In this document: one piece after another, positions 33,335 to 40,873 of the stretch
Layout of the letters: the number at the start of each line of letters is the position of its first letter
Position numbering within the stretch: position 1 is the first letter of the stretch
Source: Halanaerobium sp.
GTDB lineage: Bacteria > Bacillota > Halanaerobiia > Halanaerobiales > Halanaerobiaceae
Direction of reading: 5' to 3'
DNA length: 49,325 nt
Assembly (NCBI GenBank): GCA_018399955.1
Contig: JAGYNO010000007.1
Coordinates: 1-49,325 of the forward strand
Position numbers and translations under genes: made by a program
The notes under the pieces: model-generated
Told to the model about the DNA's origin: nothing
Seen by the model: the letters and a program-made list of their open reading frames with translations, nothing else
The model's database searches: none

Positions 33335-33381
33335 GCTAACTAAAAATTATGAAGATGAGAAAGGAGAAGAGAGTATTTTAT

Positions 33382-35280
33382 ATGATTAAAACTCAAGAAT
33401 TAGAAAATGTCACTTTGCCGTCAGAATTAGAAGAACTTCTCGAGGCATGTCCGAATTATATTGTTGCACATAATGAAAATGAACTTGTAGAATTATCAGT
33501 TAGAGATGCAAAAAATGGATGTCATGAAGTTAAATATGATATTCCTGGTAAAGGGGAGGTAGTAGAGACTGTTGTTTGTAAAGTAAGGAATGGTTTATCT
33601 GCAAATTATACAGAACCCTATATGAGAAGAAGAGACCCCAACTGTATGTTAATTGCTGATGATAAACCTACAGATAAAGAAAGATATGAAGAACGTTATG
33701 CTGAAAAATTCGAGGGAATGCGTGAAGAAACATTTGAATGGCTTAAAACACAAGAGCTAGCATTATTCTTTTTTGAAACAGGTCCTTCTGGTCTTGGAGT
33801 TCAAGCTGTGGCAGTAGTCCCGGCTAATGCAGCATTTTTTGCTTTTGGACTGTCTTTACTACAAGGGATTGTTGACACACGTGAAAGAAAAGAAAATTTC
33901 GAACCTAAATCATTTATATATATAGCACCACCATTTAGACATACTCATTTTGATGGAAATCAGGTTGTTGTTCATAGAAGACTTGAAGATAAATATGAAA
34001 TGTTTGCTTATAATCTTTATCCAGGTCCAAGTGCAAAAAAGGGAGTATATGGGATGCTGATAAATCAGGGAGAAAAAGAGAATTGGTTAACTCTTCACTG
34101 TTCAGCAGTACAGGTTGTTACTCCTTATGGAAACACAGTAAATATTTCTCACGAAGGTGCCAGTGGTGGTGGTAAGAGTGAGATGCTGGAAGATATGCAC
34201 AGAGAAAGAAGTGGACGCCTTCTTTTAGGTAAAAATATTGTGACAGATGAAAAATATGAGATTACACTGCCTCAGGGCTGTGGATTAAGGCCGATGACTG
34301 ATGATATGGCTGTTACCCATAATTCTATACAGAAAAATGATGGCAAATTAACTCTTATGGATGCTGAAGACTCTTGGTTTGTACGTGTAGACCATATTGA
34401 TCAATATGGTAAGGAGCCTAACTTAGAAGCTATTACTTCTAGGCCGGAAAAGCCGCTTCTATTTTTGAATATTGATGCAGCACCAAACAGTACAGCTTTA
34501 ATATGGGAGCATATTGAGGATGAGCCGGGAAAACCCTGTCCAAACCCTCGGGTTACAATCCCTAGAGATATTATACCTGATGTATTGAAAGAGCCTCTAA
34601 CAATTGATGTAAGGAGTTTTGGAGTTAGGGTTCCGCCGAGCACAAAAGAAAATCCAACTTATGGTATTTTAGGATTATTTCATGTGCTGCCTCCAGCACT
34701 TGCCTGGTTGTGGAGATTGGTTTCTCCTCGTGGTCATGGGAATCCAAGTATAATAACTGGTGAAGGAATGAGTTCTGAAGGAGTTGGTTCTTATTGGCCT
34801 TTTGCAACTGGTAAAAAAATTGATCAGGCAAATTTGCTTTTAGAACAGATCATTGACACTCCAAAAGTTAAGTATATACTTGTTCCAAATCAGCATATAG
34901 GAGCCTGGGATGTAGGATTCATGCCAGAATGGATTACCAGAGAATATCTTGCTCGCCGCGGTGGAGCTTGGTTTACAGAAGGTCAATTGAAACCTGCCAG
35001 GATGCCACTTTTAGGTTATGCTTTAAAAGAACTGCTTGTAGAAGGACAGCATATAGAAAAAGAATTTCTGCAGGTGCATCGTCAGCCTGAAGTTGGCGAA
35101 AAAGCATATGATATTGGTGCTGAGATATTATCTGATTTCTTTAAAGATATGATTAAACAGTATTTAGAACCAGAACTTAATCCAGTTGGTAAAAAGATTA
35201 TTGAAACCTGTTTGAATAATGGTACAGTTGAAGATTATTGTGATTTAATTAATGGAGAAGCAATAATTAAAAATATATAA
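33382..35280 (+). CDS. DUF4914-type protein with an HPr-kinase/PEPCK-like P-loop
   Basis: A 632-residue cytoplasmic protein that I assign to the DUF4914 family from memory of its pattern (ELEELLEACPNYIVAHNENE at the N-terminus). Around residues 238-270 it reads LTLHCSAVQVV, then GNTVNISHEGASGGGKSEML: the phosphate-binding loop G-A-S-G-G-G-K-S-E resembles the GxSGxGKSE loop of HPr kinase and the kinase-1 motif of PEP carboxykinase. A phosphotransfer role is thus possible, and no substrate is known. ATG at 33382 is used; the earlier ATG at 33349 lies ahead of the SD AAGGAG (33361-33366). It sits between pullulanase and branching enzyme, suggesting control of glycogen metabolism, with a shared terminator on its 3' side. 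Confidence 0.7.
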   Translation: MIKTQELENVTLPSELEELLEACPNYIVAHNENELVELSVRDAKNGCHEVKYDIPGKGEVVETVVCKVRNGLSANYTEPYMRRRDPNCMLIADDKPTDKERYEERYAEKFEGMREETFEWLKTQELALFFFETGPSGLGVQAVAVVPANAAFFAFGLSLLQGIVDTRERKENFEPKSFIYIAPPFRHTHFDGNQVVVHRRLEDKYEMFAYNLYPGPSAKKGVYGMLINQGEKENWLTLHCSAVQVVTPYGNTVNISHEGASGGGKSEMLEDMHRERSGRLLLGKNIVTDEKYEITLPQGCGLRPMTDDMAVTHNSIQKNDGKLTLMDAEDSWFVRVDHIDQYGKEPNLEAITSRPEKPLLFLNIDAAPNSTALIWEHIEDEPGKPCPNPRVTIPRDIIPDVLKEPLTIDVRSFGVRVPPSTKENPTYGILGLFHVLPPALAWLWRLVSPRGHGNPSIITGEGMSSEGVGSYWPFATGKKIDQANLLLEQIIDTPKVKYILVPNQHIGAWDVGFMPEWITREYLARRGGAWFTEGQLKPARMPLLGYALKELLVEGQHIEKEFLQVHRQPEVGEKAYDIGAEILSDFFKDMIKQYLEPELNPVGKKIIETCLNNGTVEDYCDLINGEAIIKNI

Positions 35281-35373: not shown

Positions 35374-37326
35374 CTAATTACTTTTTTCTAATTCTTCCTG
35401 GTTATATTTTAAATAAACTCCAGAAAGAGGTGGTATGTTAATACTGATTGAATATTCGAAGCCGTGGAATGGCTTTTTATTTGCTTTTACTCTCGCAGAA
35501 GTATCATAATCAGACCCTCCATATACTTTCTGGTCACTATTTAAAAGTAATTCATATTCACCAGGTCCAGGTACACCAACTCTGTAATCATCTCTTGGTG
35601 TTGGAGTAAAATTAAGAAGTACAATTATCTGCTGTTTATAATTTTGAGAACTTCTAATAAAGCTGATCACACTTTGTTCATAATCATCTGCTTCTATCCA
35701 GCGAAATCCTTCAACCTGATGGTCAAGTTCCCAGAGAGCTTTTTCTTTTTGATAAACCTGATTCAGTTCCTGAATAAAATCCTGTATCTGCTGGTGTTTT
35801 TCATAATCAAGAAGCAGCCAGTCAAGTTCCTGTTTGTAATTCCATTCTATAAACTGGCCAAACTCGCCCCCCATAAAAAGAAGATTTTTACCAGGATGAG
35901 CATACATGTAGCTGTAGAGAAGTCTTAAATTAGCAAATTTTTGCCAGTAATCACCTGGCATTTTATTTAATAGTGATTTCTTACCATGTACTACTTCATC
36001 ATGTGACAAAGGAAGCATATAATTTTCGCTGTGGCTGTACATGCTGGAGAAGGTCAGTTTATTGTGTTCCCATTGTCTATAAACTGGTTCTTTTTCCATA
36101 TAATCCAATGTATCATTCATCCAGCCCATATTCCATTTAAAATTAAAGCCTAGCCCCCCCTCATCAACAGGAGCAGTAACTAAAGGCCAGGCACTTGATT
36201 CTTCAGCTATCATTAATAGTCCTGGATAACGGCTGAATAGTTCTGTATTCATTTCTTTAATGAACTCGATTGCTTCTAGATTTTCAAAACCTCCATATTC
36301 ATTTGCTGCCCACTGTCCATCTTCCTTCTCATAATTAAGATAGAGCATATTACTAACAGCATCAACTCTTAAACCATCTATATGAAATTTTTCAAGCCAG
36401 TAATTAGCACTTGAAATCAAAAAACTCCAAACTTCATTTTGGCCAAAATCAAAATTGAGTGTATCCCACTGGATATTTTCTGCTTTGCGGGGATCACCGC
36501 TTTCATAAAGTTGAGTTCCATCAAATAAACGCAATCCATGGTCATCTTTGCAAAAATGACTTGGTACCCAGTCCATGATTACACCTATATTATTTTTATG
36601 CATTTTGTTAACAAAGTACATAAAATCTTCTGGTGTTCCATAACGTGATGTTAAGGCAAAATATCCTATTGTCTGATATCCCCATGAGCCAGGAAATGGA
36701 TATTCTGTTAGCGGCATTAATTCTATATGGGTAAAACCCATCTTTTTTAGATATGGTACAAGTTCATCTGCAATATCTCTATAATTCATTAACTCACCGA
36801 CTGCTTCATGTTCACCTACTTCTTCTTCTGGCTTTTTTTCTCCTTGTTTCCAAGAACCTAGATGTACTTCATAAATGCTCAAAGGCTCTCTGAGGTAGTT
36901 TTTATGTTCTCTTTTTTTAACCCATTTTTTATCTTCCCAGTCAAAATCTTTAATTTCATAAATTTGGGAAGCTGTTTTTGGTGCTTTTTCCTGGCGTCTG
37001 GCATAAGGATCCGATTTCACTCTAATTACTCCTCTATAACCCCTAATCCAATACTTGTAATGCATTTTATCTTCTGCGTCGGGCACAAATACTGTCCAGA
37101 TTCCTGATTCTTTAATCTTTTTAAGTGGATTTTTTGTTTTGTCCCAGTCATTAAAATCACCAATCACACTAATCTTTTCTGCATTGGGAGCCCAGAGTGA
37201 AAATCTAACTCCTTTTTTACCATTTTCTTCAACAACATGAGCTCCTAAAAATTGATAGCTTTCATAATGTCTTCCCTGATGAAAAAGATATCTGTCATAA
37301 TCTCCAGGATAATTATTTTTAGGCAT
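35374..37326 (-). CDS. glgB: 1,4-alpha-glucan branching enzyme
   Basis: Makes the alpha-1,6 branches of glycogen. The N-terminal CBM48 module (LGAHVVEENGKKGVRFSLWA, with VIGDFNDWD) is followed by the GH13 barrel: VIMDWVPSHF, DGLRVDAVSNML (nucleophile), IAEESSAWPLV (acid/base) and LSHDEVVHGKKSLL. GWMNDTLDYM and FGQFIEWNY are typical GlgB. The 650-residue length matches the shorter branching enzymes without the extra N-terminal module. ATG at 37326 is 5-6 nt after the SD; the adjacent TTG at 37329 is less likely. It is convergent with DUF4914 and divergent from glgA across a 290-bp intergenic region. Confidence 0.95.
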   Translation of the reverse strand: MPKNNYPGDYDRYLFHQGRHYESYQFLGAHVVEENGKKGVRFSLWAPNAEKISVIGDFNDWDKTKNPLKKIKESGIWTVFVPDAEDKMHYKYWIRGYRGVIRVKSDPYARRQEKAPKTASQIYEIKDFDWEDKKWVKKREHKNYLREPLSIYEVHLGSWKQGEKKPEEEVGEHEAVGELMNYRDIADELVPYLKKMGFTHIELMPLTEYPFPGSWGYQTIGYFALTSRYGTPEDFMYFVNKMHKNNIGVIMDWVPSHFCKDDHGLRLFDGTQLYESGDPRKAENIQWDTLNFDFGQNEVWSFLISSANYWLEKFHIDGLRVDAVSNMLYLNYEKEDGQWAANEYGGFENLEAIEFIKEMNTELFSRYPGLLMIAEESSAWPLVTAPVDEGGLGFNFKWNMGWMNDTLDYMEKEPVYRQWEHNKLTFSSMYSHSENYMLPLSHDEVVHGKKSLLNKMPGDYWQKFANLRLLYSYMYAHPGKNLLFMGGEFGQFIEWNYKQELDWLLLDYEKHQQIQDFIQELNQVYQKEKALWELDHQVEGFRWIEADDYEQSVISFIRSSQNYKQQIIVLLNFTPTPRDDYRVGVPGPGEYELLLNSDQKVYGGSDYDTSARVKANKKPFHGFEYSISINIPPLSGVYLKYNQEELEKSN

Positions 37327-37496
37327 CAAACTCCCCCTTTCAAAATAAAAAGAAATCGTATACTTCGCTAAAGTTAGTAAATGTTCTGTATTATATTTAT
37401 TCTCTATTTACTCTTTATTTCCTTTAAATAATCTTCTTCAGCATTTGATATTCGATATATTTTTCATTTTTAAGAATAATCAGAAAATCCTTTCAT

Positions 37497-37525: not shown

Positions 37526-37617
37526 AGTGGTATACAGGAGATTTTAAATTGCTTGATTTTGTAAATTATTGAATTGTTGGAGATATAGTTTTTTGCACAT
37601 TAATAGGAGGTGGCTCC

Positions 37618-39423
37618 ATGGAAAAGAAAAAGTTGAAAATTTTGTTTGTAGCTTCTGAGGCCGATCCATTTATCAAAACAGGTGGACTTGCAGATGTTGC
37701 AGGCTCTTTACCTCAGGCACTAAAAGAAGAGGGACATGATGTTAGACTTGTAATTCCAGAATACCGACAAATTCCAGAAAAATATAAAGAAAGAATGGAA
37801 TCGGTATGTCATTTTAGAACTAATCTTGCCTGGAGAGACAGATATTTAGGTGTTAATAAATTGGAGGAAGATGGTGTAACAGTTTATTTTATTGATAATA
37901 AATATTATTTCGATAGAGATTCTATTTATGAGAATGAAGATAAGCATGAACAATTTGCATTTTTCTCACAGGCTGTACTAGATATGCTGCCTATAATAGG
38001 TTTTCAACCTGATGTGATTCATGCAAATGACTGGCAGACCGGTCCATTACCAGTACTTTTTGCAGACCGCTATCGTCAGCAGAGTTTTTATAAAGATATG
38101 AAAACAGTATTTACCATCCATAATATCCGTTATCAGGGTCAATTTGCTGGAGAAGCTGCTGGAGATGTTCTAGGTCTTGCTCCACATCACTGGGCAAGTG
38201 GTAATATTCGCCACAATGGTCTTTTAAATTATATGAAGTCAGGTATAATGTATGCAGATAAAGTAACTACTGTTAGTGAAAGTTATGCCCAAGAAATTCA
38301 GACTTCATATTTTGGTGAAGGTTTGGACTATGCTTTAAGGATGCGTGGAAATGATTTAAGTGGTATTGTAAATGGTATAAGCTACAGTAAGTTTAATCCT
38401 GAGACTAATAAAAATTTAGCAGTTCGTTATTCCAAAGGAGAAATTGATAAAAAAATTGCTAATAAAGTACATATACAGCAGAAGTTAGGACTTGAAGTTG
38501 ATGGAGATAAACCTCTAATTGGCTTTATATCAAGACTTGTTGAGCAAAAAGGTATTGACCTTGTCAAAGCTGTATTTGATGAAATAATGGCTTCAGGAGC
38601 TCAATTTTTAATATTAGGAACAGGTTTTAGAGAATATGAGGAGTTTTTAAAAGCAAAACAGGAAGAATATCCAGATAATCTTTCTGTTAATATTATGTAT
38701 GATAGTCAGTTAGCAGATCAAATTTATGCTGGAAGTGATATGTTCTTAATGCCATCCCGCTATGAACCCTGTGGTTTAAGCCAACTGATAAGCTTTCGCT
38801 ATGGTACTATACCTATTGTCAGGGAAACTGGAGGTCTTAATGACACTGTTATAGCATATAATGAGGAAACAGGTGAGGGAACAGGCTTTTCTTTCAGCAA
38901 TTATAATGCTCATGATATGCTGCATTCAATAGAAAGAGCAGTTTCTTTTTATGATAAAAAGGGTATCTGGAATAGGCTTATTACAAGAGTTATGGAATTA
39001 GATTACAGCTGGCATAATTCAGCAAAAAAATATGCTGATTTATATGCAGAAGTAAGCGGCTATAAAATCGAAGAAGCTGATGAGAAGAAATCTCCTGTAG
39101 AGATAAAAACTTTTAAACCTGATATTGATGAAATAGATTATACTGAAGAAAGTCCTGAAGAAAAAGCTGTTCAAGAATCTGAAACAATTACTATTAAAGG
39201 AACAGCTGCTGAAAAAAGTGTCCAGGAATCTGAAATGATTAATCTAAATCTGGCTTCAGCCAAAAAACTTGCTGAGCTGCCAGGAATTGGATCAGCATAT
39301 GCAGAGAGAATAGTAAATTATAGAAAGGAAAATGGTTTATTTAAAAAATCTGAAGAAATAACTAAAATCAGAGGTATTGGCCAGAAAAAATATGAGAGTA
39401 TTGCGGATATGATAATTGTATAA
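37618..39423 (+). CDS. glgA: Glycogen synthase with C-terminal helix-hairpin-helix extension
   Basis: A GT5 enzyme that extends glycogen from ADP-glucose. The N-terminal Rossmann domain has KTGGLADVAGSLPQAL (about 19-34) and HANDWQTGPLPVLF; the C-terminal GT domain has GFISRLVEQKGID and PSRYEPCGLSQLISFRYGTIP (about 378-398). Ordinary GlgA ends near residue 483 (DLYAEVSGY here). This protein continues for 118 residues: an acidic linker (about 484-539) with a twofold repeat E-K-x-V-Q-E-S-E, then residues 540-601 forming a ComEA-type helix-hairpin-helix module (INLNLASAKKLAELPGIG, then a second GIG turn in TKIRGIGQKKY). Such modules usually bind DNA. ATG has SD AGGAGG (37605-37610). No frame break is needed, and a terminator follows. 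Confidence 0.93.
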   Translation: MEKKKLKILFVASEADPFIKTGGLADVAGSLPQALKEEGHDVRLVIPEYRQIPEKYKERMESVCHFRTNLAWRDRYLGVNKLEEDGVTVYFIDNKYYFDRDSIYENEDKHEQFAFFSQAVLDMLPIIGFQPDVIHANDWQTGPLPVLFADRYRQQSFYKDMKTVFTIHNIRYQGQFAGEAAGDVLGLAPHHWASGNIRHNGLLNYMKSGIMYADKVTTVSESYAQEIQTSYFGEGLDYALRMRGNDLSGIVNGISYSKFNPETNKNLAVRYSKGEIDKKIANKVHIQQKLGLEVDGDKPLIGFISRLVEQKGIDLVKAVFDEIMASGAQFLILGTGFREYEEFLKAKQEEYPDNLSVNIMYDSQLADQIYAGSDMFLMPSRYEPCGLSQLISFRYGTIPIVRETGGLNDTVIAYNEETGEGTGFSFSNYNAHDMLHSIERAVSFYDKKGIWNRLITRVMELDYSWHNSAKKYADLYAEVSGYKIEEADEKKSPVEIKTFKPDIDEIDYTEESPEEKAVQESETITIKGTAAEKSVQESEMINLNLASAKKLAELPGIGSAYAERIVNYRKENGLFKKSEEITKIRGIGQKKYESIADMIIV

Positions 39424-39453
39424 TGAGTTTTAAAATAGTATAATACAGAATAG

Positions 39454-39477
39454 GGCTGTCTTAGACAGCCTTTTTTT
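39454..39477 (+). terminator. Terminator after glgA
   Basis: GGCTGTC (39454-39460), loop TTA, GACAGCC (39464-39470), then seven T. Confidence 0.92.
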
Positions 39478-39649: not shown

Positions 39650-40873
39650 ATGAAAATTGCTCTTGTTTCATTTTTGGCAGATATAAATGATCAACAACTA
39701 ATTGATGAGGGGCTTGCTGATAAGTATCAAAGCTTAAATAAAGATTTTAAAATAACAGAAATTGATGCTGATGAAGTTCCATATCATGATTTTTCTGAGT
39801 ATGACCTTACTCTTAACTTTATTAAGTCAGGTGGGTGCGAAAATAAATTTGCAGAAGTTTTCGATTATCTTTCTAAACCGATTTATTTGTATGCTGTTGA
39901 GCTGTATAATTCATTACCCGCAGCACTTGAAATATTAAGTTTTATTAAATCAGAAGATGAATCAGCAAAGATACTGCATGGTGAGATGGATCAAATAAAT
40001 GCAGAGATTAAAAAATTAGCTGAATATAAAAAGGTAAGAGAAAGTATTACTGAGGCAAGAGTTGGAATTATTGGTAGACCATCAGATTGGCTGATTGGAA
40101 GTAAAGTTGATTATGAACATGCTGGACATCACTGGGGAACACAATTTATAGATATTGAAATGGAAGAATTTTATAAAATTTATGATAAAGTTGATGACAA
40201 AAAAGCAGAGAAAAGAGCAGTTGAACTAGAAGATGCTGCTGAAAAGATGGTGGAAAATTCTCATCAGGATCTTGTGGAAGCAGCTAAAATATATTATGCT
40301 CTTAAAGAAATTATAGGAAGATATAACTTGAACGCTCTGACTTTAAGATGTTTTGATATAGTTGCAGAGTTAAATACAACAGGTTGTCTGGCTCTTGCGT
40401 TATTAAACAATGAGGGAATAATTGCTGGTTGTGAAGGAGATATACCTGCTGTATTTACAATGTATTTAACATATAAATTAACAGGTGAAATACCATTTAT
40501 GGCTAATCCGGCTGCTGTTGACAGCAAAAAAGATGATATTATATTTGCTCACTGTACAATTGCAACAGCTATTACTGATAAATTTATACTGCGTTCACAT
40601 TTTGAAACTGGAATTGGAGTAGGAATTCAGGGTATTGTAGATGAAGGAACTGTAACTGTTTTTAAAATTGCAGGAGCAGGACTTGAACAATATTTTGCCG
40701 CGGAGGGAAGAATCATTGGTAATCTTGATAATTCAACTGCCTGCAGAACCCAGCTTAAAGTTAATCTGCCTGGAGGTTCTGATTACTTTTTGAATGATGC
40801 AGCTGCAAATCATCATATTTTAATATCTGGGAGTCATACAGATAAAATCAATGAATTTTTAGGGATGGAATAA
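39650..40873 (+). CDS. L-fucose/L-arabinose isomerase-like protein
   Basis: A 407-residue cytoplasmic protein. The start MKIALVSFLADI, the central GRPSDWLIGSKVDYEHAGHHWG and the C-terminal AHCTIATAITDKFILRSHFETG are typical of the fucose-isomerase-like family, in which glutamate, aspartate and histidine side chains bind the metal. This is shorter than true fucose isomerase (about 590 residues), so a different or reduced substrate range is likely. SD GGAGG (39632-39636) precedes the ATG. It has its own promoter and terminates before the iron-sulfur genes without a clear hairpin. The substrate is unknown; an aldose-ketose isomerisation is the family expectation. Confidence 0.75.
   Translation: MKIALVSFLADINDQQLIDEGLADKYQSLNKDFKITEIDADEVPYHDFSEYDLTLNFIKSGGCENKFAEVFDYLSKPIYLYAVELYNSLPAALEILSFIKSEDESAKILHGEMDQINAEIKKLAEYKKVRESITEARVGIIGRPSDWLIGSKVDYEHAGHHWGTQFIDIEMEEFYKIYDKVDDKKAEKRAVELEDAAEKMVENSHQDLVEAAKIYYALKEIIGRYNLNALTLRCFDIVAELNTTGCLALALLNNEGIIAGCEGDIPAVFTMYLTYKLTGEIPFMANPAAVDSKKDDIIFAHCTIATAITDKFILRSHFETGIGVGIQGIVDEGTVTVFKIAGAGLEQYFAAEGRIIGNLDNSTACRTQLKVNLPGGSDYFLNDAAANHHILISGSHTDKINEFLGME

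What the first reader, a model, noticed from the sequence alone, without database searches (positions are those of the whole stretch)
37618..39423. Glycogen synthase fused to a ComEA-type helix-hairpin-helix module
After a normal GT5 glycogen synthase (to about residue 483) the same frame continues through an acidic linker with a twofold repeat into about 62 residues that read as a tandem HhH domain (LPGIG and IRGIG turns, INLNLAS start). Such modules normally bind DNA in competence and repair proteins; I know of none on GlgA. The module might tether glycogen synthesis to the nucleoid, or act as a protein-protein domain.
Basis: partly seen in the sequence, partly recalled or inferred. Interest (0 to 1): 0.78.

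Follow-up and report, generated by a model that had tools for sequence, protein, structure and literature searches.

The report
Glycogen synthase with DNA-binding-type tail
In a group of salt-loving bacteria, the enzyme that builds glycogen carries a small, conserved extra domain of the kind that usually grips DNA, which suggests these cells anchor their sugar store to a particular place, possibly the chromosome.

Summary
Confirmed. ORF 37618-39423 (601 aa) is a GT5 glycogen synthase (residues 6-479), a linker predicted disordered, and a ComEA-type double helix-hairpin-helix module (HHH_3, 538-599, E 7e-20). It is no frameshift: an in-frame tail occurs in 31 of the 45 GlgA-bearing genomes of the class, including all 12 of the window's genus, evolves under purifying selection and is followed by a terminator-like hairpin. 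Outside the class none was seen (59 GlgA-bearing genomes of one other class; the printed part of a phylum sample). The modelled tail matches G. stearothermophilus ComEA (TM 0.90).

Function is undecided. For nucleic acid binding: both GxG hairpins are nearly always kept and the domain is mostly basic. Against: of four ComEA lysines tested by mutation the window keeps one, and the essential one (Gs K166) is Tyr, Phe or Leu in all 32 tails. HhH_3 is also joined to DUF4912 (once as GlgA-HhH-DUF4912) and to a CBM48/X25-like domain in this class, so docking is a serious rival. Best reading: a flexibly tethered localisation module, nucleic acid slightly preferred. No description was found in print (searches listed).

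The parts
37618..39423 (+). glgA-HhH gene, 601 aa plus stop
37605..37610 (+). AGGAGG, ribosome-binding-site-like sequence before the ATG
   Evidence: read from the sequence
37633..39054 (+). GT5 glycogen synthase catalytic region, residues 6-479
   Evidence: NF001898 1.2e-201; Glyco_transf_5 4.3e-88 and Glycos_transf_1 2.5e-17
39055..39228 (+). linker, residues 480-537, predicted disordered (483-537 pLDDT below 50), acidic here
   Evidence: (net charge -11)
39103..39123 (+). linker motif IKTFKPD (residues 496-502); [IL]K[VIT][YF]xP is in 12 of 12 linkers of the genus and in 0 of 20 other tailed GlgA
39160..39192 (+). first copy of the linker repeat
   Evidence: 26 of 33 nt identical to the second copy
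39211..39243 (+). second copy of the linker repeat, running into the HhH start
39229..39420 (+). double helix-hairpin-helix module HHH_3, residues 538-601
   Evidence: model mean pLDDT 88.6; Foldseek best match 8dss ComEA, TM 0.90
39277..39291 (+). first hairpin LPGIG, residues 554-558
39298..39300 (+). Y561, at the place of ComEA(Gs) K166, the essential DNA-contact lysine
   Evidence: PMC9747964 passages
39370..39381 (+). second hairpin RGIG, residues 585-588, followed by Q589 K590 K591
39452..39472 (+). intrinsic-terminator-like hairpin and T run right after the gene
35374..37329 (-). glgB (branching enzyme: alpha-amylase domain with CBM48 and GlgB_N), divergent neighbour

Best explanation
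The tail is a ComEA-fold helix-hairpin-helix module on a flexible linker that localises glycogen synthase without taking part in catalysis. The most likely ligand is nucleic acid, bound without sequence specificity through the hairpin backbones and the lysine-rich second hairpin, so that glycogen is made next to, and perhaps carried with, the nucleoid. Shown: the fusion, its conservation and purifying selection. Predicted: its fold and the loose linker. Inferred: the localising role. Inferred and weakly supported: nucleic acid as the ligand.
For: The tail is conserved in frame in 31 of 45 GlgA-bearing genomes of the class. dN/dS of the HhH is 0.07-0.34 in the 7 of 8 pairs within the genus that gave a value, against 0.02-0.06 for the catalytic part (8 of 8) and 0.26-0.83 for the linker (4 of 8). 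The closest solved folds are ComEA and Tex. The first hairpin GxG is kept in 31 of 32 tails and the second in 30 of 32. Position 196 (Gs numbering) is K/R in 27 of 32 tails. Mean net charge of the domain core is +4.5 (32 tails, window +4) against -0.9 for 16 ComEA-like domains of the same class. Some linkers of the genus are themselves strongly basic, up to +15.
Against: The K166 position of ComEA, whose change to Ala abolishes the gel shift (PMC9747964), is Y 23, F 4, L 5 in 32 tails and never basic, against 12 of 16 basic in ComEA-like domains. Of the four ComEA lysines mutated in that paper (Gs K166, K195, K199, K201) the window keeps only K195 (K590); the others are Y561, S594 and A596. 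Six of 32 tails have net charge 0 or below. The window's linker is acidic, and the two pairs that include the window give the highest HhH dN/dS, 0.23 and 0.34. HHH_3 relatives such as PsbU and GspK are protein-binding (general knowledge). No tool here tests binding. HhH on other alpha-glucan proteins equally suggests docking.
Confidence: 0.42

Rival explanations
1. The HhH is a protein docking module of the alpha-glucan machinery: HhH units on GlgA, on DUF4912 proteins and on CBM48/X25-like proteins bind each other or one common partner and assemble a glycogen-making complex. DNA is not involved.
For: One of 59 genomes encodes GlgA-HhH-DUF4912 in one chain. Four genomes have separate HhH-DUF4912 proteins (Pfam on one of the four; DUF4912 and HhH matches in the same frame for the other three). 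DUF4912 lies next to or about 3 kb from glgA in 9 further genomes, with a GH57 branching enzyme and phosphorylase in the two operons read. Ten genomes have an HhH plus CBM48/X25-like protein (Pfam on three of the ten). Genomes with a tail-less GlgA have such a separate HhH protein more often: 8 of 14 against 6 of 31, p 0.017 without correction for relatedness. The essential ComEA lysine is absent.
Against: The window's genus has no DUF4912 (0 of 12) and no HhH-CBM match at E 1e-9 (0 of 12), yet all 12 keep the tail. Both hairpin GxG turns and, in 26 of 32 tails, a positive charge are kept, which a pure docking module would not need. The p values rest on related genomes.
Confidence: 0.39
2. The HhH face has been reworked to bind glucan: the conserved aromatic residue at the first hairpin (Y/F in 27 of 32 tails) stacks on glucose, so the tail acts as an unusual carbohydrate-binding module.
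For: Aromatic Y/F stands at the place of the DNA-contact Lys in 27 of 32 tails, 27 of 27 in the window's order.
Against: No HhH domain is known to me to bind glycans; five tails have Leu; the separate HhH-CBM proteins already carry a glucan-binding-like domain, so HhH would be redundant there.
Confidence: 0.08
3. The tail is a neutral leftover of an old fusion that is being lost at random.
For: At least 7 gains or losses of the tail on the GlgA tree; 14 of 45 GlgA-bearing genomes lack it.
Against: dN/dS well below 1 within the genus and hairpins kept in nearly all tails; kept in 14 of 14 genomes of the window's family.
Confidence: 0.06

Closest known systems
Bacterial GlgA glycogen synthase, GT5 (NF001898, TIGR02095; PDB 2qzs, 3d1j)
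   Same: Whole catalytic region, residues 6-479, above the curated cut-off
   Different: The close bacterial GlgA chains in the PDB (3d1j, 2qzs, 3cop, 1rzu) are 477-485 residues long; this one has 122 residues after 479, ending in HHH_3
ComEA DNA-binding domain (TIGR00426; PDB 8dss, 8dfk, 2duy)
   Same: Same fold by model (8dss TM 0.90, rmsd 0.9 A), same two hairpins, same INxNxA-type start
   Different: On a glycogen synthase; membrane anchor and oligomerisation domain of ComEA (PMC9747964) not found here; K166 replaced by Tyr/Phe/Leu; more basic residues at the second hairpin
Tex transcription accessory protein HhH (PDB 3bzk)
   Same: Second closest fold (TM 0.87); HhH module inside a larger protein
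   Different: Unrelated partner domains; in the HhH tree two Tex-like rows (named by me) form their own long branch
PsbU and T2SS GspK, HHH_3 relatives
   Same: Related fold (PsbU TM 0.55-0.67; T2SSK Pfam 0.036)
   Different: Much more distant; recalled to be protein-binding with a degenerate second hairpin, which GlgA tails keep
HhH-DUF4912 and HhH-CBM48/X25-like proteins of the same class
   Same: Same HHH_3 module joined to alpha-glucan-linked domains
   Different: Separate genes (except the G049 fusion); no GT5 domain

Membership tests
GlgA glycogen synthase (GT5) | Full-length match over the curated cut-off | tested here: met
   NF001898 670.5 bits against 603
GlgA glycogen synthase (GT5) | ADP-glucose-dependent glucan synthase activity | not testable with these tools
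   needs an assay
HHH_3 / ComEA helix-hairpin-helix domain | Profile match over the cut-off | tested here: met
   PF12836 71.3 bits against 27; TIGR00426 54.4 against 53.1
HHH_3 / ComEA helix-hairpin-helix domain | Two hairpins with GxG turns | tested here: met
   both present in the window; first hairpin GxG in 31 of 32 tails, second in 30 of 32
HHH_3 / ComEA helix-hairpin-helix domain | Fold | tested here: met
   predicted only: AlphaFold2 mean pLDDT 88.6; Foldseek 8dss TM 0.90
ComEA-like DNA binding | Lys at Gs166 / Bs164 | tested here: not met
   Y561 here; 0 of 32 tails basic
ComEA-like DNA binding | Lys at Gs195 (second hairpin) | tested here: met
   window K590; K 17 and R 2 of 32 tails
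ComEA-like DNA binding | Lys at Gs199 and Gs201 | tested here: not met
   window S594 and A596; over all tails K 15 and K 17 of 32
ComEA-like DNA binding | Binding of DNA | not testable with these tools
   needs EMSA or anisotropy
ComEA protein (TIGR01259) | Whole-protein match | tested here: not met
   66.5 bits against a cut-off of 152.35

The most novel reading that the evidence does not exclude
These bacteria make glycogen on the nucleoid: the HhH tail ties glycogen synthase to chromosomal DNA, so glycogen is spread and partitioned with the chromosome instead of collecting at an old cell pole, where in an E. coli csrA mutant glycogen was reported to exclude the chromosome (PMC4836754, passages read).
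Probability: 0.2. Interest if true: 0.85.

Novelty: new variant of a known kind. Interest (0 to 1): 0.55.

Why it matters
How bacteria choose where glycogen is made and how it is shared between daughter cells is largely open (my reading of the field, not searched). An enzyme with a dedicated, removable localisation module gives a direct way to test it: cut the tail and look. It also points to DUF4912, for which one search listed a single paper, on cotton callus (listing only), and to small HhH-CBM proteins as further parts of alpha-glucan biology.

Tried and rejected
Frameshift or neighbour artefact: rejected by conserved in-frame tails. Wide spread in the phylum: searches (398 genomes, 220 with GlgA, only part of the match rows printed; 151 genomes of another class, 59 with GlgA) gave no further tail; eleven loci with long open frames (L086-L096) and G516 were read and have no HhH. 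Because cut its list, weaker GlgA matches of that sample were not judged. Outside the phylum no search for the fusion was made.

Single origin of the tail: not rejected (p-AU 0.143) but not shown; 65 columns for 71 rows is too little. The GlgA tree is a quick one with SH-aLRT support only. Two GlgA matches of G030 (C109, C22) were left out of it; their alignments end at residues 479-480. Duplicate loci of one gene were dropped before the counts. The 'ComEA', 'MBL' and 'Tex' groups were named by me from frame length and sequence, not by a family search. The ComEA-like group's four f10/f11 rows have T or L at position 166, so the Lys contrast holds for the window's order only (27 of 27 GlgA tails Y/F, 12 of 12 ComEA-like rows K/R). 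The first charge means (+5.4 and -0.2) included flanking residues; the report uses the domain core. Only 5 of the 10 HhH-CBM proteins were read in full.

The full-length structure model is poor (mean pLDDT 51.7, 7 sequences in the alignment); only tail and linker are used from it. Similarity of the CBM-like part to designed TIM barrels in the PDB search was taken as spurious. The CBM call rests on sub-threshold Pfam matches (X25 at best 25.1 of 27, CBM_48 at best 19.9 of 22.4 bits). An internal ATG at M540 with AGGA upstream was not pursued. Of the 20 loci only L193, L196 and L197 were annotated. Papers: PMC9747964, PMC4836754 and PMC11046441 were read as passages only; the rest as search listings.

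Full report
The frame 37618-39420 (stop to 39423) encodes 601 residues with an ATG, an AGGAGG before it and a terminator-like hairpin right after it. Residues 6-479 are a complete GT5 glycogen synthase (NF001898, E 1.2e-201, above cut-off). Residues 538-599 match HHH_3 (PF12836, E 7.3e-20) and, just above its cut-off, the ComEA repeat model TIGR00426.

It is a conserved fusion. The order search covered 38 genomes and the class search 59. Of the 59, 45 have a GlgA match; 31 of the 45 carry at least one GlgA with the tail in the same frame, 14 do not. All 14 genomes of the window's family, 12 of them of its genus, have it. Of 52 GlgA matches in these genomes 32 have a tail; 50 of the 52 went into the tree. 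On that tree 47 GlgA of the class form one side of a starred branch, all 32 tails lie in it, and the three GlgA that fall among outgroups (G009, G030, second copy of G031) have no tail. The tree needs at least 7 gains or losses. In a second class of the phylum 59 of 151 genomes had GlgA and none a tail. In a phylum sample 220 of 398 had GlgA; among the rows printed none outside the class aligned beyond residue 499, but not all rows were printed.

It is under selection. Among eight pairs within the genus the HhH gives dN/dS 0.07-0.34 (7 of 8 finite), the catalytic region 0.02-0.06 (8 of 8), the linker 0.26-0.83 (4 of 8 finite); the two pairs with the window give the two highest HhH values. Inside the otherwise fast-changing linker a short motif, [IL]K[VIT][YF]xP, is present in 12 of 12 GlgA of the genus (residues 496-501 here) and in 0 of 20 other tailed GlgA; I have no explanation for it beyond a possible docking site. 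Linker charge runs from -13 to +15 over 32 linkers, so the acidic linker of the window is no general property.

Fold. The tail modelled alone has mean pLDDT 88.6 and four helices in two hairpins. Its best solved match is G. stearothermophilus ComEA (8dss, TM 0.90, 0.9 A, 65 columns), then Tex (3bzk, 0.87), then ComEA-related 2duy and KIF22, and, weaker, PsbU and XPF.

Does it bind DNA? For ComEA, Lys166 (Gs numbering) contacts DNA in the authors' computed model and the K166A protein gives no gel shift; Lys195 and Thr196 also contact DNA in that model, and the B. subtilis counterpart of Lys201 is needed for transformation (PMC9747964, passages). On an alignment of 32 GlgA tails and 16 ComEA-like domains of the class, position 166 is Y 23, F 4, L 5 in GlgA, never basic, and K 10, R 2, T 2, L 2 in ComEA-like rows. 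Split by group: in the window's order 27 of 27 tails have Y/F and 12 of 12 ComEA-like rows K/R; in families f10 and f11 five of five tails have L and four of four ComEA-like rows T or L, so there the contrast vanishes. Of the four lysines mutated in the paper (166, 195, 199, 201) the window has Y561, K590, S594, A596. In the second hairpin GlgA tails are more basic: position 194 K 18, position 195 K 17 or R 2, position 196 K 21 or R 6 (Thr in 15 of 16 ComEA-like rows). Mean net charge of the domain core is +4.5 against -0.9, with 6 of 32 tails at 0 or below. GxG is kept in 31 (first hairpin) and 30 (second) of 32 tails. The signs point both ways: the general HhH means of holding a phosphate backbone are present, the specific ComEA lysine is not.

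Other HhH proteins of the class matter for the reading. G049 encodes GlgA-HhH-DUF4912 in one 782-residue chain. G052, G056, G057 and G058 have separate HhH-DUF4912 proteins. A DUF4912 gene lies directly downstream of glgA on the same strand in G052, G054, G055, G057 and G058, and about 3 kb upstream of it in G046, G047, G048 and G050; in the two operons read (G055, G058) a GH57 branching enzyme and a phosphorylase follow, and in G031 a DUF4912 gene abuts a GH57 branching enzyme. In all DUF4912 was found in 22 of 59 genomes and in none of the window's family. Ten genomes have a small protein of HhH plus a CBM48/X25-like domain (Pfam matches for three of the ten, below the curated cut-offs). These separate HhH proteins are commoner where GlgA lacks the tail (8 of 14 against 6 of 31, p 0.017; HhH-CBM alone 6 of 14 against 4 of 31, p 0.049), but the genomes are related and the test ignores that. 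HHH_3 in this class is thus joined repeatedly to alpha-glucan proteins. A common ligand, DNA or a partner protein, would explain this; which of the two is not settled. HhH is also found on MBL-fold-like proteins and on a dynamin-like GTPase, so the module is generally mobile here.

Verdict. A localisation module on a flexible tether is the safest functional statement. I put nucleic acid slightly ahead of protein docking (0.42 against 0.39). If the chromosome is the anchor, the consequence would be notable: in an E. coli csrA mutant GlgA-GFP gathers at the old pole and glycogen there was reported to exclude the chromosome (PMC4836754, passages). A DNA-tied synthase might avoid this. Nothing here tests that.

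Print. Searches for glycogen or starch synthase with helix-hairpin-helix, ComEA, Halanaerobi or nucleoid, and for DUF4912 and Halanaerobium with glycogen, listed no paper whose title or abstract start describes such a fusion (5 of 5 papers listed; 28: 1 of 1; 29: 20 of 28; 55: 10 of 19; 69: 10 of 65). In the held part of a 2024 review of prokaryotic alpha-glucan enzymes (PMC11046441) the passages for hairpin, nucleoid, DNA-binding, C-terminal extension, fused and bifunctional mention none. The library holds open-licence papers only, and automatic domain annotations in sequence databases may already show the architecture.

Noticed in passing
L166-L175 (G001, G032, G028, G030, G047, G029, G024, G026, G023, G051): Small proteins (open frames of 152-182 aa in the five read) of HhH_3 plus a CBM48/X25-like domain; Pfam matches of the second part are below cut-off.
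   Followed up: partly
L072/L109 (G049), L111 (G056), L144 (G058), L155 (G057), L156 (G052): HhH_3 joined to DUF4912; DUF4912 sits in alpha-glucan gene clusters with GH57 branching enzyme, so it is probably part of glycogen metabolism.
   Followed up: partly
window 39103-39123: Short linker motif [IL]K[VIT][YF]xP kept in 12 of 12 GlgA linkers of the genus although the rest of the linker varies freely.
   Followed up: partly
L110 (G058:C26): Dynamin-like GTPase with two HHH_3 modules at its C-terminus.
   Followed up: no
L097-L104, L106-L108, L113: Proteins that look MBL-fold by eye, with a hydrophobic N-terminal stretch and a C-terminal HhH_3; 7 of 12 have Trp before the first hairpin and 6 of 12 lack the second GxG.
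   Followed up: no
window 33349-35280: Full-length DUF4914 protein beyond glgB (PF16260, 1048 bits), function unknown.
   Followed up: no
window 39650-40873: 407-aa ORF with no Pfam match at 1e-5, just downstream of glgA; resembles sugar isomerases to the eye only.
   Followed up: no
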